Below, one piece after another: positions 16,814-50,470 of a stretch of DNA of 64,000 nucleotides. Origin of the DNA: Pseudomonadota bacterium (GTDB lineage Bacteria > Pseudomonadota > Gammaproteobacteria > Burkholderiales > Burkholderiaceae_C); assembly GCA_020161145.1 (NCBI GenBank), contig JAIUPQ010000001.1, forward strand, positions 124,001-188,000, given 5' to 3'. The notes beneath the pieces were generated by a model. That model did not search any database. It was not told the DNA's origin and saw only the letters and a program-made list of their open reading frames with translations. The position numbers were made by a program, and so were the translations under genes. Numbering within the stretch: position 1 is the stretch's first letter; each line of letters opens with the position of its first letter.

Positions 16814-17887
16814 ATGAAGATGCTCCCCGCCTTGCACCCATCCTTTCAAGAAAACGCCGGGCCGTCCCAAGTTTTCTTGTCCCCCTCGGGGGGCGGGCCG
16901 GGCGCAGCCCGGACCTGGGGGCGTTCTCAAGAAAACGCCGGGCCGTCCCAAGTTTTCTTGTCCCCCTCGGGGGGCGGGCCGGGTGCAGCCCGGACCTGGG
17001 GGCGTTCTCAAGAAACCGCCGGGCCGCCCCAAGGTTTCTTGTCCCCTTTGGGGGGCGGGCCGGGCGCAGCCCGGACCTGGGGGCGTTTGACAGCGCACCC
17101 TCTGCTGCGGTGGAGCCCTGTGCTGGTGTTGCTGGCGCTGCAAGCGTGCCAGACGCCGCCCCAGGATTCGGTGCCCGCGCCCGCGCCGGCGGCGGTGCAC
17201 AAACCGGTGGCGCCGTCGCCCCCACCGCCGCCGCCACCACCGCCCAAACTGGTGCCGCGCACCGACGCCGAAATCCGCCAGTTCCTGGACGCGGCGCGCA
17301 ATGCGTTGGACCTGGGCCAGGAAGACGCCGCGCTGACCGAGGTCGACAAGGTGCTGGCGTCCGACCCCGAGCACAAGGTGGCGCTGACCCTACAGCGCCA
17401 GATTCAGGACGACCCGCAAGCGCTGTACGGCACGGCATCGTTCCCCTACCGCGTGGTGGCGGGCGACGGGCTGGCGCTCATCGCCCAGCGCTTCATGGGC
17501 GACCGCGACCAGTTCTATGGCCTGGCGCGCTACAACGGCATCCGCTCGCCGCGCCAGTTGGCGGTGGGCCAGACCATCCGCATCCCCGGCACGGCGCCGC
17601 GCGTGATGCCGCCGCCCGCCCCCGCTCCCGAGCCGGCGCCAACCCCGGCCGCGGCCATTGCGCCCGCACCCGCACCGGCGCCGCCGCCGCCCACGGCCGC
17701 GCAGACCCAGGCGAAGGTGACGGCCGCCTCTCGTCGCGCGCGCGCCGCGCTGGCGCGGCAAGACGTCTGCGGCGCCATTGCCGGCTGGGACGAGGTGCTG
17801 CGCCTGGAGCCAGGCAACCGCACCGCCACGCTGGAGCGTGACCGGGCGCTGGACCTCAAGAAGCGTCTGCCCGATGCCAAGTGCTGA
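16814..17887 (+). CDS. LysM-containing lipoprotein of the T6SS cluster, N-terminus invaded by a repeat
   Basis: Read from ATG 16814 the product has 357 residues: a 12-residue leader, then three 27-residue repeats (each an 81-bp DNA repeat). A lipoprotein signal peptide follows (LLRWSPVLVLLALQAC, lipobox LQAC), then a poly-proline linker, a helical repeat region (EIRQFLDAARNALDLGQEDA), a LysM-like module (YRVVAGDGLALIAQRFMGDR, then GQTIRIP) and a C-terminal helical repeat. A TTG at 17087, just after the repeats, would give a normal lipoprotein start. With the ATG, the signal peptide lies about 95 residues inside the chain and would probably not be exported normally. It is likely a periplasmic peptidoglycan-binding accessory protein; its exact role is unknown. 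Confidence 0.75.
   Translation: MKMLPALHPSFQENAGPSQVFLSPSGGGPGAARTWGRSQENAGPSQVFLSPSGGGPGAARTWGRSQETAGPPQGFLSPLGGGPGAARTWGRLTAHPLLRWSPVLVLLALQACQTPPQDSVPAPAPAAVHKPVAPSPPPPPPPPPKLVPRTDAEIRQFLDAARNALDLGQEDAALTEVDKVLASDPEHKVALTLQRQIQDDPQALYGTASFPYRVVAGDGLALIAQRFMGDRDQFYGLARYNGIRSPRQLAVGQTIRIPGTAPRVMPPPAPAPEPAPTPAAAIAPAPAPAPPPPTAAQTQAKVTAASRRARAALARQDVCGAIAGWDEVLRLEPGNRTATLERDRALDLKKRLPDAKC
16846..17088 (+). repeat. Three tandem 81-bp palindromic elements inside a coding sequence
   Basis: Units lie at 16846-16926, 16927-17007 and 17008-17088. The first two are almost identical (one C/T difference seen); the third has several changes. Each starts TCAAGAAAACGCCGGGCC, contains a dyad (AAGAAAAC facing GTTTTCTT) and a GC-rich second half with further dyads. 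As 81 is a multiple of 3, the frame is kept, giving units that begin SQENAGPSQVFL. Related copies lie on the minus strand at 21767-21847 and, degenerate, at 50299-50334. Confidence 0.93.
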
Positions 17888-17942
17888 CCCGCCTGGCGGG
17901 TACAGCCTGAGCACGCGCCACCGCTGATGTGGACCCGACGCC

Positions 17943-18812
17943 TCAGCGCCCCGCCAACTGGCGCGTCAGCGCGCGGGCGCGGGCGTGGGCGGGGCTGAGC
18001 TTCAGGCATTCGGCCAGTGCGGCCCGCGCCGCAATGGGTTGGCCGGCCTGTGCCTGCCGCGTGGCCTGCTGAAAGTACAGCTCGGCCAGATCCGCGCGCA
18101 GGCGGCGCGGGTCGTCGCCGCTGGCGCGGGCCAGGGCGCCACGCAGCTCGGCAATGGCGGCATCCAGGTCGTCGTCCTGGCGGGCCAGCATCGCGGCGTG
18201 TTCGCGGGCGGCGTTGGCCGGCTGGGGGGTGGGCGCCGAGGGCTCGGTGCGGCGGGTGGCGCGGCGGGTGGCCGGCGCACTGGCCTGGCCATCGGCGGGG
18301 GCATCGGCCAGCGCCTCGGCAGCCGGTGGCGTCATGGCGCGTGGCCCGCGGGCGTTGCCCTGCCGGGTGCGGCGGGCTTCGGCCTCGCGCAGCGCGTCGG
18401 CCGGGGCGGTTGCTGCGGGGTCGATGACCAGGGCCTGCAGGTAGGCGGCCTGCGCCGCGTCGGCGTTGCCCCGGGCGGCGGCGGCGCGCGCCTGCGTCAG
18501 TTGGGTGGCCAGGGCCGCTTGCTGGCGCTGGAGCGTGTCCAGGCGATGGCGCTGCGCGTCGGCGTCGTCGGGGCTCAGGGTCAGCACCACGTCCCAAGCC
18601 CACAGCGCCTGTGCCCATTGCTGGGCGGCCTGGGCGGCCTGGGCGGTCTGGCGCTGCCGCTGCTGCCAGGCCGAGACCACGTCCACCGGGGCGGCCACGG
18701 CCGGGGTGCCCGGGGCCACCGGCGCCGGGGGGGTGGCGCAGCCGGCCAGCGTGGCGAGCACGGCCAGCCCCGCATTCGCGCGGGCCCCGCAGGCCGGACG
18801 GCGCCCGGTCAT
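17943..18812 (-). CDS. TPR-like lipoprotein of the T6SS cluster
   Basis: A 289-residue product with a lipoprotein signal peptide (AGLAVLATLAGC, lipobox LAGC) and two helical TPR-like regions. One is around 60-150 (QWAQALWAWDVVLTLSPDDA, then NADAAQAAYLQALVIDPAA). The other is at the C-terminus (LYFQQATRQAQAGQPIAARA, then LKLSPAHARAR). A basic, low-complexity stretch separates them. The ATG at 18812 overlaps the deacetylase stop by four bases. The C-terminal residues include LARQDDDLDAAIAELRG, similar in style to the LARQDVCGAIAGWDEVL end of the LysM lipoprotein, so the two may work together. No enzymatic motif is seen. Confidence 0.72.
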   Translation of the reverse strand: MTGRRPACGARANAGLAVLATLAGCATPPAPVAPGTPAVAAPVDVVSAWQQRQRQTAQAAQAAQQWAQALWAWDVVLTLSPDDADAQRHRLDTLQRQQAALATQLTQARAAAARGNADAAQAAYLQALVIDPAATAPADALREAEARRTRQGNARGPRAMTPPAAEALADAPADGQASAPATRRATRRTEPSAPTPQPANAAREHAAMLARQDDDLDAAIAELRGALARASGDDPRRLRADLAELYFQQATRQAQAGQPIAARAALAECLKLSPAHARARALTRQLAGR

Positions 18813-19891
18813 GGCTTGGCCTCGCGGCGGGTGCCGGGGGTCTGGCCTTGCACGCGGGCCTGGAAGTCGGCCAGGTCGCGGTCGCCATAAATCATGACCC
18901 GCCGCAGCAACAGCGGCGCGGCATAGAAGCGGTTGGTGCCTGGGTCGACGGTGAGGCCCAGCTCGTAGTCGTTGCGCGTCATGGCAGCCAGAACGGTGTC
19001 GTTGGCGTCTCCGTAGGGGTAGGCCAGGTGACGCACGGGGCTGGCCGGGCCGCCATCCTGGGCCTGGTTGCGCTCCAGCACGGCCCGCGGCACCAGCAGC
19101 TCGCGGTCGATGCGGTGGCGGTAGGCGCTGTCGGCCTCGCCCTCCAGGCGCTCGATCAGGTTGGCGTGGCTTTTGCCGTGGGCCTGCACGTCCATCAGGC
19201 CCGAGGCGGCCATCTGACGCATCTGTGCCGGCGTGACCGCATCGCGCGAGCCCAGAAAGTCGGTGTAGACGAACAGCGTGGCCGGGTAGCCCAGGCGTTG
19301 CAGCACCGGAAAGGCGTGGCGAAAAACCGACTGGTAGCCGTCGTCGAAGGTGATGGCCACGCTGCGTGGTGGCAGCGCACGGCGGCCGGCGAGGAACCCG
19401 GCCACCTCGGCCAGCGAGACCACGCGGTAGCCCGCATCGGCCAGCCACTGCATCTGGGCCTCGAAGCGGGCGGGGGTGATCTCCATGCGCGAGACGGCCA
19501 ACCCCACGCGGTGGTAGCACAGGATGGTGATGCCCTGGGCGCCGGCCGCGGTGACGCCCAGCGGGTTGGGGGGCACCAGCGGCACCACCACGGGCTGACC
19601 CGCCTGGGGCCGGTCGAGGCCGGGGTTGGCCTGGGCGACCTGCCAGCCCTCGCGGGCCTGGCCCAGGAACCGGGCGGCGATGGCGTTCCAGCCTTCGTCG
19701 GCATGGGGCAGGTAGACCAGCATGCGCGCGCTGCGGCCCAGCACGCTGCCGGTCGCGGGCGGCAGGGGCGTGGCGGCCGGGGGAACGGGTGGCGCCACGG
19801 GTGGGCTGGCGCAGCCGGCCAGCACGGCCGCCAGCGCCGCCACGAGCCAGCCGGCCGCGGCCGGCGGCAGGGGCGCCGGTCGGACGTTCAT
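18809..19891 (-). CDS. Polysaccharide deacetylase lipoprotein of the T6SS cluster
   Basis: The 360-residue product has a lipoprotein signal (AALAAVLAGC, lipobox LAGC) and a LysM-like N-terminal segment (GWNAIAARFLGQAREGWQVA). A NodB-type polysaccharide deacetylase domain follows. Seen motifs are ILCYHRVG at its start, AITFDDGY (metal-binding Asp-Asp), and VQAHGKSHANL corresponding to the H-x3-H metal ligands. Such enzymes remove N-acetyl groups from envelope polysaccharides. Here it probably modifies peptidoglycan near the T6SS; that link is inference. It is coupled on both sides by 4-base overlaps with the kinase and the TPR lipoprotein. Confidence 0.82.
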   Translation of the reverse strand: MNVRPAPLPPAAAGWLVAALAAVLAGCASPPVAPPVPPAATPLPPATGSVLGRSARMLVYLPHADEGWNAIAARFLGQAREGWQVAQANPGLDRPQAGQPVVVPLVPPNPLGVTAAGAQGITILCYHRVGLAVSRMEITPARFEAQMQWLADAGYRVVSLAEVAGFLAGRRALPPRSVAITFDDGYQSVFRHAFPVLQRLGYPATLFVYTDFLGSRDAVTPAQMRQMAASGLMDVQAHGKSHANLIERLEGEADSAYRHRIDRELLVPRAVLERNQAQDGGPASPVRHLAYPYGDANDTVLAAMTRNDYELGLTVDPGTNRFYAAPLLLRRVMIYGDRDLADFQARVQGQTPGTRREAKP

Positions 19892-21936
19892 GCGGTGGGT
19901 GCCGGTGCGGCAGGGGGGTCGGTTGGCGCGTCAGCCGGGTGGGTGCCCATGGGCTCGGCCTTGATCTGGCGCTTGAGGGCGGCGATCTCGGTGGCCTGCT
20001 CGGCCTCGCGCCGCTGCAAGGTGTTGGCCATCTGGTCGAAGGCATTGAACAGCAGGCCGAACTCATCCTTGCGCGCCTCGGCGATGCGCACCGACAGTCC
20101 GCCGGCCGCAATCTGACCCATGGCGTGGCGCACCAGGCGGATGGGTTTGGCAAAGCGGTCTCCCAGCACGAACATGGCCACGCCCACGGCGGCAATGGTG
20201 ACCAGCACCAGCACCACCATCAGCGTGACGGCCAGCCGCGCGACCTGGGTCAGTGGTTTCTCGGGGATGCCCAGTGCCACCCGGCCCACCTCGTGGTCCT
20301 GGAACTCGATGGGGGCCTCGAAGCCCAGCACGGGCTCGCCCTGCACCGCGTAGCGCACGGCCTGGGTGTCGCCGGCCAGCTTGCCCAGCGACTCCGTGCC
20401 GGCCGCCTGGTAGGGCTTGCCGACCAGCGCCGGGATGCTGCTGGCGCGCACGGTGCCCTTGGCGTCGATGACGACGATGCGCTCGAAGTTGCCGGTGAGC
20501 ATCATGTCGTCCACGGCGACGCCCACCACCTCCCACTCCTCGCGCAAGGCCTCGGCCGCGTTCTGCCGCGCGATGAAGCGCGCCAGCGAGGCGCCGTAGT
20601 CGGTGGCCTGGCCCATCAGCGCGGCGTACTGGCGCTGGTTGATGAGGGTGGCGGTGATGCCCATGACCACCGCCACCACGCAAGCCATGGCCAGCGCCCA
20701 GCGCACGCGCAACGAGACGATGCGCGGCGCGTGGGCGCGCGCCGCCTTGGCATCGATTTCGGCCAGCACGGCGGTCAAGGCCTCGGCCAGCTCTTCGCCG
20801 CTCTGGTAGCGCTGGCCCGGCGGCTTGGCCAGGCAGCGCTCGATCACGCGGCGCAGCGCCGCCGGTGCGTCGGGCCGCGCCTGGGTGACGGGCGGTGGCT
20901 GCTCGGTGGCGATCCGGGTGGCCACGGCGACCAGGCTCTCGCCCTTGAACGGGCGCTCGCCGGTGACCATCTGGTAGAGCACCACGCCGGCCGAGAACAG
21001 ATCCGAGCGGCCGTCGAGCTTGTCGCCACGCGTCTGCTCGGGCGACATGTACTGCGGCGTGCCGATGACGGCGCCCACCTGGGTGCGCTGGTTGTCGCCC
21101 TCGTCCATGTGGGCGATCCCGAAGTCGGTCACCTTGACGGTTTTGCCGTCGGCCAGCAGCATGATGTTGCCGGGCTTGATGTCGCGGTGGACGACGCCGC
21201 GCGCATGGGCGTAGTCCAGCGCCCGGGCCAGCTGGATGCCGATGGCCACGGCATCGCGGATGGGCATGGCGGGCTTTTTGTCCAGCGCCTCGCCCAGGGT
21301 CTGGCCGTCGATCAGCTCCATGGCCATGTACGGCCGCCCGCCGATCTCGCCCACGTCGTGGACCACCGCAATGTGGGGGTGCGAGAGCCCGCCGGCCGCC
21401 CGCGCCTCGCGCAGAAAGCGGGCATGGCATTCGGCATCCTCGGCCAGCGAGGCGTGCAGGAACTTGATGGCCACGTCGCGCCCGATGGAGGGGTCGGTGG
21501 CGCGGTAAACGGTGGCCATGCCGCCGCGCCCCAGCCGGCCCTGCACCAGGTAGCGGCCCACCTGCTTGACCACGCCCGCATCGGCGGCCCCCGTTGCCTG
21601 CGGCGGCAGCGTGCGCGCGGGCAGGCCCGTCAACGTGCCCAGGGCGCCCAGCGTGGCGGGCGCGGTGGTGGGCGTGCCGGCGACGACGACCGTCTCGTCG
21701 CCCGCAAACGTGGGCGGCGGCACGATGACCGTCTCATCGCCGCCCTGGGGCGGGGCGGCGGATTGTGAGCCCCCCCGGGCCCGGGCTTCGCCCAGTCCGC
21801 CCCCCGCAGGGGTCAAGAAACCTTGGGGCGGCCCGGCGTTTTCTTGAGATGGCGGCAGCGTGGCCGGCACGATGACGGTTTCGTCACCGCCCGGCAAGGT
21901 GGCAGGCTGCGCAGAAGGAGGAGGCACCGGACTCAT
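19888..21936 (-). CDS. ppkA: T6SS serine/threonine protein kinase (PpkA-like) with HAMP domain
   Basis: A 682-residue membrane kinase predicted to phosphorylate the FHA protein. The N-terminal tail has three copies of GDET(V)(I/V)V with Thr at 20, 69 and 82. Between the first and second lies an 81-bp repeat insertion (residues 30-56). The kinase domain runs from about 110 to 380: G-loop GRLGRGGMATVYRA, Lys158 in VAIKF, catalytic loop HRDIKPGNIM with Asp252, then DFGIAHMDEG. Two membrane helices (about 405-425 and 567-590) flank a periplasmic sensor region, and a HAMP-like segment and a coiled coil end the protein. Kinase residues are intact. The gene overlaps the deacetylase gene by four bases. 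Confidence 0.9.
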   Translation of the reverse strand: MSPVPPPSAQPATLPGGDETVIVPATLPPSQENAGPPQGFLTPAGGGLGEARARGGSQSAAPPQGGDETVIVPPPTFAGDETVVVAGTPTTAPATLGALGTLTGLPARTLPPQATGAADAGVVKQVGRYLVQGRLGRGGMATVYRATDPSIGRDVAIKFLHASLAEDAECHARFLREARAAGGLSHPHIAVVHDVGEIGGRPYMAMELIDGQTLGEALDKKPAMPIRDAVAIGIQLARALDYAHARGVVHRDIKPGNIMLLADGKTVKVTDFGIAHMDEGDNQRTQVGAVIGTPQYMSPEQTRGDKLDGRSDLFSAGVVLYQMVTGERPFKGESLVAVATRIATEQPPPVTQARPDAPAALRRVIERCLAKPPGQRYQSGEELAEALTAVLAEIDAKAARAHAPRIVSLRVRWALAMACVVAVVMGITATLINQRQYAALMGQATDYGASLARFIARQNAAEALREEWEVVGVAVDDMMLTGNFERIVVIDAKGTVRASSIPALVGKPYQAAGTESLGKLAGDTQAVRYAVQGEPVLGFEAPIEFQDHEVGRVALGIPEKPLTQVARLAVTLMVVLVLVTIAAVGVAMFVLGDRFAKPIRLVRHAMGQIAAGGLSVRIAEARKDEFGLLFNAFDQMANTLQRREAEQATEIAALKRQIKAEPMGTHPADAPTDPPAAPAPTA
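21767..21847 (-). repeat. Single 81-bp palindromic element inside the kinase gene
   Basis: This is the minus-strand copy of the element found three times at 16846-17088. It starts TCAAGAAAACGCCGGGCCGC and translates in the same frame (SQENAGPPQGFLTPAGGG). It occupies residues 30-56 of the kinase, between the first and second GDETVIV motifs, in a region that looks disordered. The first half is closest to the third unit of the lipoprotein array. Confidence 0.9.
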
Positions 21937-28231: not shown

Positions 28232-30442
28232 TTAGTTGATGCCGGTCTTGGCGCCCTTGATCACCACGTCGCTCGAGGCCTTGACGTTGATCTTGCCCGA
28301 GCCCTTGAGCGCGATGTCCTTGCCGTCCAGGACGATGGTGCCGTCGCTTTTCATCGTGAGGCTGGCGCTGCCGGTCTTGAGGGTGATGCTGTCGCCGGCC
28401 TCGATGGTCAAGGCCTTGCCCACGTTCAGCGTGTCACTGCCGCCCACCTGGGCGCTTCGGTCGGAGCCCACATCCCACGACTGGTTGGCCCCCACGCTGG
28501 TGGATTGGCTGGCGCCCACCGCCACCACCTGGGCGGCGCCGATGGCCACCTCTTGTGCGGCGCCGATGGCGATGGTCTCGTTGACGCCCACGGTGTGCGT
28601 GCGCTGCAAGGCCACGGTGGCCGTCTCGCTCGCGCCCACGGTGATGCTGCGGTTGGCGCCGATGGTGATGCTCTCGTTGGCGCCCACGGTCTCGGTGCGG
28701 TTGGCACCGATGGTGATGGACTCGTTGCTGCCCACGGTCTCGGTGCGGTTGACGCCAATGGAGATGGACTCGTTGTTGCCCACGCTCTCGGTGCGATCCA
28801 CACCAATGGTGATGGTCTCGTTGTTGTCCACCGTCTCGGTGCGGTCGTGCTTGACGTGGGTGGTCTCGTCATGATCCACGGTCTTGCTGCGGTCGTGGCC
28901 CACCCAGTGGGACTCGTCGTTCTCGACCTCGATGCGCTGGTCTTTCTCGGCGTGCAGCCACAGCTCCTCGGCGCCCTGCTTGTCTTCAAAGCGCAGCGCA
29001 TTGGCGTTGCCGTAGGCGCCGCCCTTGCTGGAGCGGGTGAGGATGCCGCTTTGCGTGGCATTGGCCGGCAAGTCCCAGGGCGGCATCTGCTCGGCGTTGT
29101 AGACGCGGCCGGTGATCAGCGGCTGATCCGGGTCGCCTTCCAGAAAGCTGACCACCACCTCCTGGCCTATGCGCGGGATGTCGATGGCGCCGTAGTTCTT
29201 GCCCGCCCAGGGCTGCGAGACCCGCACCCAGCACGAGGACTTGTCGTCGCGCTGGCCCAGCCGGTCCCAGTGGAACTGCACCTTCACGCGGCCGTATTTG
29301 TCGGTGAACAGCTCGTCGCCGGCGGGGCCGGTGACCACGGCCGTCTGCGGCCCGTGCACGCAGGGCTTGGCCGTGGCGCGCGGCGGGCGGAACTGCTGCC
29401 CGGCCGGTATGGCCTCGAACTGGGCGGCAAAACCCGCCCCGGCCGCGCCGCCGTCGAACACCGCCACCTGGGCCTGGATCTGCACCCGCGTCAGCAGGTA
29501 GCTGGCGTTCTGGTCGTCGCGCGGGTGGCCCGTGAGCGTGAAGGTGCGGCCGGCCTCCAGATGCATGACGTTGCTCTGGCCGCCGTGGCGCAGGTGGCGC
29601 GTCTGGGCGGCGTCCAGCCAGTCGTCGGCCAGTTGCTGGCCGTCGGCTTTTTGCAGGTAGTCGCCCTGCATGTCGAAGCGCTCGGCGCCCGCCTGCGGGT
29701 GCGAGCGGCTGACCTGCGCCGTCACCCGCAGCGAGGCCGAGGGGCGCTCGAAGTCGTAGCTGGTCAGCGCCACCTGCTCGGTCTGGATGTGGGCGTCGTG
29801 CCGCCAGGCCGAGACGTATTGCTGGCCCGGCGCCGCCGTGGCGGTGTCCTCGATGTGGCGCACCTCGGACTCGCCCGCCACCGGGTCGTGGGCGCTGTGG
29901 TCGTCCACCAGCGTCAGCGTGTGCCGCCCGTCCTCATGCGCCGTGTACCAGTAGATGCCCTCCAGTTCCAGCAGCCGGCTGATGAAGTCGAAATCCGTCT
30001 CGCGGTACTGCACGCAATACGTGCGCTTGCGGTAGCTGCGCATCAGCTTGAGGCTGAGCTGGGCCACGCCGGCGTGGTCGTCACAGACCTTGCGCACGAT
30101 CTCGGGCACGGTCATGTCCTGAAAGATGCGGCTGTCCGCCGTGCGGGTCATGAACCACGGCCAGGGCCGCACCTCGGCGTGGTAGGCATGAAAGCGCCCG
30201 CGCGCCGCGCCATGGCCAAAGCGCGTCACGTGGCCGTGAAACCAGCGCTTGAGCCCTTCGCCGTCCTCCAGGCACACGCCCACGGGCTGGCCCAGCAAGT
30301 CGCCGGCCGCCACGTCCAGCCGGGGGCTGAGCAGGTCCAGGTGGATGCGGCCCAGCCGGCTCAGGCCCTCGTCCACCGTCAGCGCCTCGATGAACAGCTC
30401 ATCGGGCGGCAACGCAGAGGCGAGGGTCAGCGCGGCAGGCAT
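28232..30442 (-). CDS. vgrG: T6SS spike protein VgrG (TssI)
   Basis: VgrG forms the trimeric tip of the Hcp tube. The 736-residue product has the gp27-like base (about 1-370: YCVQYRETDFDFISRLLELE, then GIYWYTAH), the gp5 OB region (GDELFTDKYGRVKVQFHWDR, then WVRVSQPWAGKNYGAIDIPR), and IGQEVVVSFLEGDPDQPLIT. A long beta-helix follows from about 500. The beta-helix includes a run of near-identical 14-15-residue repeats around NESITIGANRTETVG. There is no extra C-terminal toxin domain; the cargo is instead encoded by the next genes. It heads the minus-strand effector module. Confidence 0.95.
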   Translation of the reverse strand: MPAALTLASALPPDELFIEALTVDEGLSRLGRIHLDLLSPRLDVAAGDLLGQPVGVCLEDGEGLKRWFHGHVTRFGHGAARGRFHAYHAEVRPWPWFMTRTADSRIFQDMTVPEIVRKVCDDHAGVAQLSLKLMRSYRKRTYCVQYRETDFDFISRLLELEGIYWYTAHEDGRHTLTLVDDHSAHDPVAGESEVRHIEDTATAAPGQQYVSAWRHDAHIQTEQVALTSYDFERPSASLRVTAQVSRSHPQAGAERFDMQGDYLQKADGQQLADDWLDAAQTRHLRHGGQSNVMHLEAGRTFTLTGHPRDDQNASYLLTRVQIQAQVAVFDGGAAGAGFAAQFEAIPAGQQFRPPRATAKPCVHGPQTAVVTGPAGDELFTDKYGRVKVQFHWDRLGQRDDKSSCWVRVSQPWAGKNYGAIDIPRIGQEVVVSFLEGDPDQPLITGRVYNAEQMPPWDLPANATQSGILTRSSKGGAYGNANALRFEDKQGAEELWLHAEKDQRIEVENDESHWVGHDRSKTVDHDETTHVKHDRTETVDNNETITIGVDRTESVGNNESISIGVNRTETVGSNESITIGANRTETVGANESITIGANRSITVGASETATVALQRTHTVGVNETIAIGAAQEVAIGAAQVVAVGASQSTSVGANQSWDVGSDRSAQVGGSDTLNVGKALTIEAGDSITLKTGSASLTMKSDGTIVLDGKDIALKGSGKINVKASSDVVIKGAKTGIN
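28500..28890 (-). repeat. Internal repeats encoding the VgrG beta-helix
   Basis: About eight to ten units of roughly 42-45 bp encode variants of NESITIGANRTETVG (for example NNETITIGVDRTESVG and SNESITIGANRTETVG). The DNA units are close enough to allow slippage or recombination, so the needle length may vary between strains. They are protein-coding repeats, not a CRISPR or tandem non-coding array. Confidence 0.75.
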
Positions 30443-50147: not shown

Positions 50148-50298
50148 TGCAGTCCCCCCAAGACGGCCGCACCTTTGCGTGCGCCGTCAACCCGGTCTAT
50201 GTGATGTGAAGGGCCATCATGACAGAAGCCGGCACGACGTGGGCCGTGTGTTGAGAAGCACCCCTGGTCAGGGCGTTGTCCCGCCTGCCCCTGCGCGA

Positions 50299-50334
50299 TA
50301 AAGAAAACTGGGGGTGCCCTGGCATTTTCTTGTG
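50299..50334 (-). repeat. Degenerate non-coding copy of the 81-bp palindromic element
   Basis: Read on the minus strand, ACAAGAAAATGCCAGGGCAC followed by CCCCAGTTTTCTT aligns with the first half of the coding units (TCAAGAAAACGCCGGGCC..CCCAAGTTTTCTTG). The AAGAAAA/TTTTCTT dyad and the central GCC and CCC are kept; the second half (towards 50272) is only loosely similar. It lies between the response regulator and the tRNA gene. Confidence 0.6.

Positions 50335-50393: not shown

Positions 50394-50470
<77 letters not shown>

What the first reader, a model, noticed from the sequence alone, without database searches (positions are those of the whole stretch)
16846..21847. A frame-preserving palindromic repeat has entered two T6SS genes in the same reading frame
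Three tandem 81-bp units (16846-17088) lie in the LysM lipoprotein gene and one unit (21767-21847) lies in the kinase gene on the other strand. All four translate in the same frame as SQENAGP(S/P)Q(V/G)FL... 27-residue units, and all keep the frame. A degenerate non-coding relative lies at 50299-50334. This is reminiscent of Rickettsia palindromic elements, which also insert into proteins in a favoured frame, but I know of no such described family in this group. Two independent genes hit in one window suggests a widespread and active coding repeat.
Basis: partly seen in the sequence, partly recalled or inferred. Interest (0 to 1): 0.78.

Follow-up and report, generated by a model that had tools for sequence, protein, structure and literature searches.

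The report
Stop-codon-docked palindromic repeat inside genes
An 81-base hairpin repeat that often sits directly after genes in many betaproteobacteria has also landed, without breaking the reading frame, inside conserved proteins of this bacterium and its relatives, so a little-studied DNA family is adding short peptides to enzymes.

Summary
The four units exist as described. They belong to a chromosomal hairpin repeat with 48 covariance-model matches in this 3.5-Mb genome, patchy in its order (26 of 299 other genomes) and in 40 of 41 genomes of a second genus. Hot et al. 2011 (PMC3110155) very probably described it as BRE, "Beta-proteobacterial repeat element"; I could not compare letters with a Bordetella copy.

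What looks new: (1) 61 of 172 copies in five genomes dock on a convergent gene's stop codon (-5 to +3 bases), in one orientation; 10 docked proteins tested, of G000's 16, end naturally. (2) 26 of the 172, 30 with two uncertain loci, lie in frame inside genes, among them RlmN, LeuRS, LigA, RecQ, ValRS, MurE and UvrA. RlmN has exactly 27 residues that 10 of 10 genus orthologues examined lack. (3) All six frames are used, so the single favoured frame fails.

The kinase copy is a coding insert; the lipoprotein units may be only a 5' leader. Stem 1 covaries. How the repeat moves is unknown.

The parts
16846..16926 (+). repeat unit 1 of the tandem array (81 bp)
   Evidence: R1 hit 98.9 bits (this copy is in the model's alignment)
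16927..17007 (+). repeat unit 2 (80 of 81 identical to unit 1)
   Evidence: R1 hit 96.7 bits (in the model's alignment)
17008..17088 (+). repeat unit 3 (75 of 81 identical to unit 1)
   Evidence: R1 hit 93.8 bits (in the model's alignment)
16847..16879 (+). stem-loop 1 of unit 1: arms 16847-16855 and 16871-16879, conserved loop between; arms covary across copies
16881..16893 (+). stem-loop 2 of unit 1 (CCCCC/GGGGG)
21767..21847 (-). repeat unit inside the kinase gene, same strand as the gene, in frame
   Evidence: R1 hit 85.0 bits (in the model's alignment)
19888..21936 (-). Ser/Thr protein kinase gene that carries the insert in its variable N-terminal linker
   Evidence: NCBIfam kinase matches, best 341.7 bits, under that model's cut-off of 450; orthologues without insert
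16814..17887 (+). LysM/lipoprotein ORF; ATG at 16814 (GAGG, then 6 bases, upstream) or TTG at 17087 are the candidate starts, so the units are either an N-terminal extension or a 5' leader
50256..50333 (-). weak, degenerate relative of the repeat, not examined for coding, upstream of a tRNA gene (50394-50467)
   Evidence: 29.6 bits; tRNA

Best explanation
The units are copies of a non-autonomous, chromosomal, roughly 80-bp repeat family of Burkholderiales and allied betaproteobacteria, very probably the family named BRE. Each copy has three hairpins: stem 1 with a conserved loop and freely changing but complementary arms, a C5/G5 stem 2, and a variable third hairpin. [Shown in five genomes] About a third of copies lie immediately 3' of a gene's stop codon, nearly always in one orientation, so the element becomes the start of that gene's 3' untranslated region. 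[Inferred] In that orientation the commonest form of stem 1 ends in TTTTCTT and would act as an intrinsic-terminator-like or mRNA-end hairpin. [Shown] Some copies lie inside genes in frame; the unit is 81 bp = 27 codons and several of its six frames are usually open, so an insertion can add about 27 residues without truncating the protein. [Inferred] Frame-shifting genic insertions are removed by selection, and survivors lie in tolerant loops or linkers. The kinase copy is one of these. The lipoprotein array is a tandemly multiplied copy at the gene's 5' end, with translation unproven. [Inferred] Spread is recent in some genomes and depends on an unidentified enzyme acting in trans.
For: Copies: 48 hits in G000; 12 of 15 other genus genomes by blastn; 26 of 299 other genomes of the order (15 candidates scored per genome, so a lower bound); 40 of 41 genomes of a second genus; 110 stretches in named genomes, all Betaproteobacteria where the title names a group that fine. 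Elsewhere: plasmids 1 record of 72,556, phages 0 of 50,697, viral contigs 0 for the exact core. Structure: 96.3% of cells paired and 35 two-sided changes, against 9.6 in shuffles and 3-13 in slid controls. Docking: stop codon at -5..+3 of the model's 3' end in 16 of 50 (G000, all TGA) and 23 of 48, 11 of 41, 10 of 29, 1 of 4; at the other end 3 of 50 and 2 of 48, 0, 0, 0. A partly overlapping set gives 68 of 150 at the 3' end and 3 of 150 at the other. Ten docked proteins, of the 16 in G000, each reach within 4 positions of the end of at least one NCBIfam profile. Genic copies; family matches (19 of 21 genic proteins submitted). Empty orthologues: RlmN 10 of 10 examined; LeuS 6 of 10 readable by the motif search and all six empty, RecQ 12 of 12, LigA 5 of 5; kinase 23 of 23 read, 1 more not readable. 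Mobility: 10 of 16 Thiomonas sp. FB-6 copies compared are letter-identical with different flanks. Terminator-like matches on the docked strand of all four units (5 in the region, 1.5 expected).
Against: No mobilising enzyme was found: no Y1 transposase in the genome (no other transposase family was searched), and no clear co-variation of flanks as a target-site duplication would give. In the second genus most stem-1 arms that I read run T...A rather than A...T, so the terminator reading cannot hold for all members. Single units do not fold better than shuffles of themselves (z -1.02 to 0.06); the structural evidence is covariation alone. Genic and docked calls rest on a home-made codon-usage score trained on 23 ORFs of the window. 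HMM matches of genic proteins were often to partial ORFs and under the whole-protein cut-offs (ValS, MurE, UvrA, copper ATPase, kinase); one submitted protein (L373) had none. RlmN, RecQ and some other genic copies are weak model hits (33-60 bits). Docked copies shared by descent between related genomes were not removed, so the 172 are not all independent. For glutamate racemase the best-scoring profile ends 34 positions short, and only another profile reaches the end. No transcription or translation data.
Confidence: 0.7

Rival explanations
1. Rickettsia-palindromic-element-like coding parasite: the element spreads chiefly by entering ORFs in one favoured frame whose peptide is tolerated.
For: Six forward-orientation genic copies read the core in the same AGP(P/A)Q frame: kinase, RecQ, RlmN, acyl-CoA dehydrogenase, CcsB and UvrA; DoxX and the lipoprotein join them if they are translated across the copy.
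Against: Over all genic copies all six frames occur; forward off1 is 8 of 13 (P about 0.03), or 7 of 12 without DoxX (P about 0.07). 142 of 172 copies were not called genic, and 61 of 172 are stop-docked.
Confidence: 0.15
2. REP/REPIN-type element mobilised by a RAYT (TnpA_REP, Y1 transposase).
For: Short imperfect palindromes with covarying stems, tandem arrays, mostly extragenic; a left edge that is mostly CTC without co-varying duplication.
Against: No PF01797 match in the host genome, though the same search rings in 5 of 14 control genomes. The three-hairpin layout and stop docking are not features that I recall for REPs (recall, no call).
Confidence: 0.2
3. Vertically inherited 3'-UTR regulatory RNA rather than a mobile element.
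For: Precise docking behind stops in one orientation; covarying stems; the BRE paper reports transcripts (bprJ1, bprJ2) from a locus that holds a BRE (PMC3110155).
Against: Insert-free orthologues within the genus; identical copies at ten places in one genome; tandem arrays and genic copies.
Confidence: 0.1
4. The window segments are ordinary conserved protein sequence.
For: Open frames across all four units.
Against: The kinase orthologues read (23 of 23 besides the window's) lack the segment; the lipoprotein orthologues whose start region could be read (8 of 22) show a signal peptide and no unit.
Confidence: 0.01

Closest known systems
BRE, Beta-proteobacterial repeat element (Hot et al. 2011, PMC3110155; abstract, passages and section 14 read)
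   Same: About 75-91 bp, GC-rich, chromosomal, mostly intergenic, tandem with no or few bases between, some overlapping ORF ends by a few bases, some inside coding sequences; Bordetella plus Comamonadaceae (Acidovorax, Delftia, Polaromonas, Rhodoferax, Verminephrobacter) and Azoarcus.
   Different: The text that I read gives no sequence, no structure, no stop-codon rule and no list of genes with inserts (its figures and supplements were not seen). Sequence identity with a Bordetella copy was not tested here.
Bor-1 and Bor repeats of Bordetella (PMC2267715, PMC1590033; passages read)
   Same: Structured intergenic stem-loop family of 93-117 bp in Bordetella; Bor stem-loops lie close to coding regions.
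   Different: Described there only in Bordetella; their sequences are in figures not held, so identity is untested.
Rickettsia palindromic elements (RPE), as summarised in the MITE review PMC10969869 (passages read)
   Same: Short palindromic repeats inserted in frame into unrelated genes, adding a peptide.
   Different: Different bacteria and size (about 150 bp); [quoted passage not shown]
ERIC/RU repeats carrying ORFs inside genes (Delihas 2007, PMC2759123; abstract and section list read)
   Same: Intergenic repeats also found intragenically with the amino-acid sequence kept.
   Different: Enterobacterial, 103-168 bp.

Membership tests
BRE | Length 75-91 bp, mean GC about 69% | tested here: met
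   Own full copies 74-86 bp; GC of model hits mostly 0.65-0.77, range 0.56-0.82
BRE | Repeated in chromosomes of Betaproteobacteria, Comamonadaceae and relatives | tested here: met
BRE | Tandem copies with no or few bases between | tested here: met
   (7 in a row in G612)
BRE | Usually intergenic, some overlap ORF ends, some inside CDS | tested here: met
BRE | Sequence homology with the Bordetella reference copy | not testable with these tools
   No named Bordetella genome reachable after the one genome-contig scan; paper figures and supplements not held. A genus that I take for Achromobacter (inference) carries the same architecture
RPE-like coding element | In-frame insertion into unrelated protein genes | tested here: met
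   families
RPE-like coding element | One conserved reading frame and peptide | tested here: not met
   All six frames
REP/RAYT element | Y1 (RAYT) transposase in the genome | tested here: not met
   PF01797 0 matches in G000
MITE | Target-site duplication | tested here: not met
   Flank identity exceeds the expectation from base composition by at most 0.05 in 110 non-tandem copies
Intrinsic terminator | GC stem followed by T-run in the docked gene's sense | tested here: inconclusive
   Four consensus matches in the window units, but most arms differ in the second genus

The most novel reading that the evidence does not exclude
A mobile family that inserts precisely behind stop codons, acting as a portable gene-end module, and that by missing its target has threaded roughly 27-residue linkers through conserved enzymes (two aminoacyl-tRNA synthetases, RlmN, LigA, UvrA, MurE, an FtsY-like GTPase) in several genera of Burkholderiales. 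It would be a natural experiment in protein insertion tolerance and a stop-codon-targeted mobility mechanism without a known enzyme.
Probability: 0.4. Interest if true: 0.78.

Novelty: new variant of a known kind. Interest (0 to 1): 0.58.

Why it matters
Repeats in bacteria are usually read as extragenic. Here one family has a sharp positional rule (the first bases after a stop codon, one orientation) and at the same time adds peptides to conserved enzymes, with insert-free relatives as ready controls. That makes two open questions testable: how short non-autonomous repeats choose sites, and how often protein loops gain length by repeat insertion. It also warns annotators that unexplained 25-28 residue inserts in Burkholderiales proteins can be repeat DNA.

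Tried and rejected
Ordinary conserved protein: rejected. Rfam: at the gathering thresholds the window gives only a tRNA. RAYT-mobilised REP: no Y1 domain in the genome. Target-site duplication, first CTC and then TCA at both ends: looked likely by eye, but flanks do not clearly co-vary. TGA as the target: dropped when the second genus showed docking on TAA, TAG and TGA alike (7, 6 and 7 of the 20 stops found for 29 loci, 16 of the 20 within 9 bases; several of these loci are the same gene in related genomes). Truncation by an element-borne TGA: rejected for the ten docked proteins tested. Single-unit folding energy: uninformative. Confirming BRE by lexA adjacency: no lexA motif in the loci scanned. 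Literature by sequence letters: 2 irrelevant papers. Literature for other descriptions: listings; passages of PMC2755013, PMC7563307 and PMC8386462 added nothing on the repeat itself. My statement that stop docking and the gene list are undescribed rests on those searches of an open-access library and on no wider reading.

Counts and what was left out: one search gave 48 hits; 51 G000 places were carried forward (43 from the blastn lists, some of them fragments, plus 8 weak ones) and 50 had enough flank. One search found 194 matches in four genomes and listed only part of them; I fetched and classified 128, the better-scoring ones, of which 122 had 200 bases on each side. The 165 related copies gave 6 genic ones; they were chosen by an exact core pattern or a top score and partly overlap. 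Frame tally of 32 genic loci: forward off0/1/2 = 1/8/4, reverse = 6/5/8, lipoprotein left out, one Variovorax duplicate counted once, the C-terminal extensions at C11:107736 and C3:245134 left out. It was made by hand; offsets are relative to the start of the model hit, so one or two could shift register (C5:269083 by its peptide belongs to reverse off0), and not every member was HMM-checked. The DoxX copy lies after five codons and a later ATG is possible, so it is counted as uncertain, like the lipoprotein array.
Full report
OBSERVATION. The three tandem 81-bp units at 16846-17088 (+) and the single unit at 21767-21847 (-) are real. Units 1-3 are 80, 75 and 74 of 81 identical pairwise, and the kinase unit is 69 of 81 identical to unit 1. 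Four matches to the 18-base head against a mean of 0.13 in shuffles excludes chance. All four read SQE(N/T)AGP(S/P)Q(V/G)FL. The relative near 50300 is weak (29.6 bits). Five of six frames are open in each lipoprotein unit and four of six in the kinase unit, so an open frame across a unit says little by itself.

THE FAMILY IN THIS GENOME. The window lies in a 3.51-Mb genome. Blastn with the unit found 37 places, and a unit with the alternative third hairpin found 40 (both searches scored only 40 candidates). I aligned 37 fuller copies. The consensus structure has a 9-bp stem 1 around a conserved loop (GCCGGGCCGCCCCAAG), a 3-bp inner stem, a C5/G5 stem 2 and traces of a variable third hairpin. 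On this alignment 96.3% of cells pair, 7 of 19 pairs show two-sided changes, and 35 two-sided cells compare with 9.6 in shuffles. By eye, stem-1 arms may change completely while staying complementary: CAAGAAAAC/GTTTTCTTG usually, ACCCCATC/GATGGGGT in the RecQ copy and TACGGCG/CGCCGTA in the RlmN copy (read). The covariance model R1 finds 48 hits at E <= 0.01 in the genome.

DISTRIBUTION. Twelve of 15 other genus genomes match the unit. R1 hits 26 of 299 other genomes of the order, with only 15 candidates scored per genome, so this is a lower bound; counting the own genus, hits fall in 20 of 135 genera. That the order is Burkholderiales is my inference from the named relatives. In a second genus of another family, 40 of 41 genomes have hits; I take it for Achromobacter from genome size and gene content, no name was given. 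An exact core pattern found 110 stretches in named genomes; where titles are specific they are Xenophilus, Thiomonas, Piscinibacter, Variovorax, Burkholderia, Paraburkholderia, Trinickia, Aromatoleum, Zoogloea and other Betaproteobacteria. Plasmids gave one record, a 3.5-Mb Burkholderia replicon; phages none; viral contigs none for the exact core. Ten of 16 Thiomonas sp. FB-6 copies compared are letter-identical with different flanks, which points to recent spread.

STOP-CODON DOCKING. I scored flanks with a codon-usage model trained on 23 window ORFs. At the model's 3' end a convergent gene's stop codon falls within -5..+3 bases in 16 of 50 G000 copies, all TGA. In the same-genus G003, Xenophilus azovorans, Piscinibacter sakaiensis and Variovorax sp. 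YR216 it does so in 23 of 48, 11 of 41, 10 of 29 and 1 of 4: 61 of 172 in all, of which 59 are TGA, 1 TAA and 1 TAG. A partly overlapping set gives 68 of 150 with 58 TGA, 7 TAA and 3 TAG. At the other end stops are scattered: within -5..+3 there are 3 of 50 and 3 of 150 and 2 of 48, 0, 0 and 0. Copies shared by descent were not removed. Ten of the 16 docked G000 proteins, DnaK, glutamate racemase and MaiA among them, were searched; each matches at least one NCBIfam profile to within 4 positions of its end, so these stops are natural. For glutamate racemase the best-scoring profile stops 34 positions short. In the second genus the stop lies 0-9 bases after the end of the last unit in 16 of 29 loci, with TAA, TGA and TAG alike, though several loci are the same gene in related genomes. 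The docked strand of the window units contains terminator-like sequences, but most arms of the second genus would not, so a terminator role is inferred for copies with the CAAGAAAAC-type arms only.

COPIES INSIDE GENES. In G000, in-frame copies lie in the window kinase, RecQ, RlmN, LeuRS, a GNAT protein and LigA; the lipoprotein array and a DoxX protein are uncertain because the copy lies near the start and a later start is possible. In the four further genomes 20 of 122 copies are in frame with coding flanks: 14 of 41 in X. azovorans, 4 of 48 in G003, 2 of 4 in Variovorax and 0 of 29 in P. sakaiensis. So 26 of 172 copies are genic, or 30 with the four uncertain ones. HMM searches match 19 of 21 genic proteins submitted: ValRS, MurE, UvrA, a copper-type ATPase, TssM, an ABC ATPase and an AMP-binding enzyme in X. 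azovorans; MeaB and HupE in G003; CcsB and acyl-CoA dehydrogenase in Variovorax; an SRP54-type GTPase, FtsY-like by its domain order, in L216; and RlmN, LeuS, LigA, RecQ, GNAT, DoxX and the kinase in G000. Several matches are to partial ORFs and below whole-protein cut-offs; L373 had no match and the lipoprotein only a weak one. RlmN carries exactly 27 extra residues between VFIPE and DRGTLC where 10 of 10 genus orthologues examined (of 15 relatives) have VFIPEDDRGTLC. LeuS: 6 of 10 relatives could be read by the motif search, and all six lack the insert; RecQ: 12 of 12 lack it over the two motif forms used; LigA: 5 of 5 lack it. Of 24 kinase orthologue loci fetched besides the window's, 23 could be read and none has the segment. 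Of 22 lipoprotein orthologues the start region of 8 could be read; all show a signal peptide and no unit.

FRAMES. Genic loci use forward off0/off1/off2 in 1/8/4 cases and reverse off0/off1/off2 in 6/5/8 (hand tally of 32 loci; register could shift for one or two). The window's frame (AGPPQ) is mildly over-represented among forward copies: 8 of 13, P about 0.03 if the three frames were equal, or 7 of 12, P about 0.07, without DoxX. This is not a favoured frame in the RPE sense.

LIPOPROTEIN. The ATG at 16814 follows GAGG and six bases. The residues before the units are MKMLPALHPSF, and after them the frame reads LTAHPLLRWSPVLVLLALQAC. A TTG at 17087, at the edge of unit 3, gives a 20-residue leader before the lipobox cysteine; eight orthologues have 17-26. 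The region before unit 1 does not score as coding. Whether the units are translated stays open.

HOW IT MOVES. There is no Y1 transposase in the genome (no other transposase family was searched) and no clear co-variation of flanks in 110 non-tandem copies. In 133 copies of the main stem-1 type the left edge is mostly CTC (72, 77 and 87% per base) before TCAAG, and the right edge mostly GCTCA (71-86% per base). A trans-acting, unidentified enzyme is my inference.

WHAT IS KNOWN. Hot et al. 2011 (PMC3110155; abstract, passages and section 14 read) named the Beta-proteobacterial repeat element: 75-91 bp, mean GC 69%, tandem, variable in number, usually intergenic, sometimes overlapping ORF ends or inside coding sequences, in Bordetella, Comamonadaceae and Azoarcus. 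Every feature testable here agrees; the letters could not be compared. Cozzuto et al. 2008 (PMC2267715, passages) list Bor-1, a structured intergenic family of Bordetella, perhaps the same. In-frame insertion of short palindromic repeats is known for RPEs (PMC10969869, passages) and enterobacterial RU/ERIC elements (PMC2759123, abstract). So family and behaviour are of a known kind; the stop-codon rule, the covarying arms and the list of conserved enzymes with inserts are what my searches did not show described.

Noticed in passing
window 28623-28891: Tandem array with 24/48/96-bp periods; I did not identify the gene it lies in.
   Followed up: no
L241 (G000 C8, LigA): Beyond the 26-residue repeat-derived segment, LigA carries about 27 further extra residues before the zinc finger that the five genus relatives read lack; possibly a second, decayed insert.
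   Followed up: partly
L392 (Xenophilus azovorans): A copy also sits in frame in a TssM (IcmF) gene, another T6SS component.
   Followed up: partly
L299 (G612:C1:28522-29099): Seven head-to-tail units in the second genus; the unit read and the start of its neighbour share the same stem arm, while arms differ between loci. Not checked for all seven.
   Followed up: no
element right part: The terminal GGGGGC can pair with the 5' arm of stem 2 instead of the adjacent GGGGG, so two exclusive folds seem possible; seen by eye, not computed.
   Followed up: no
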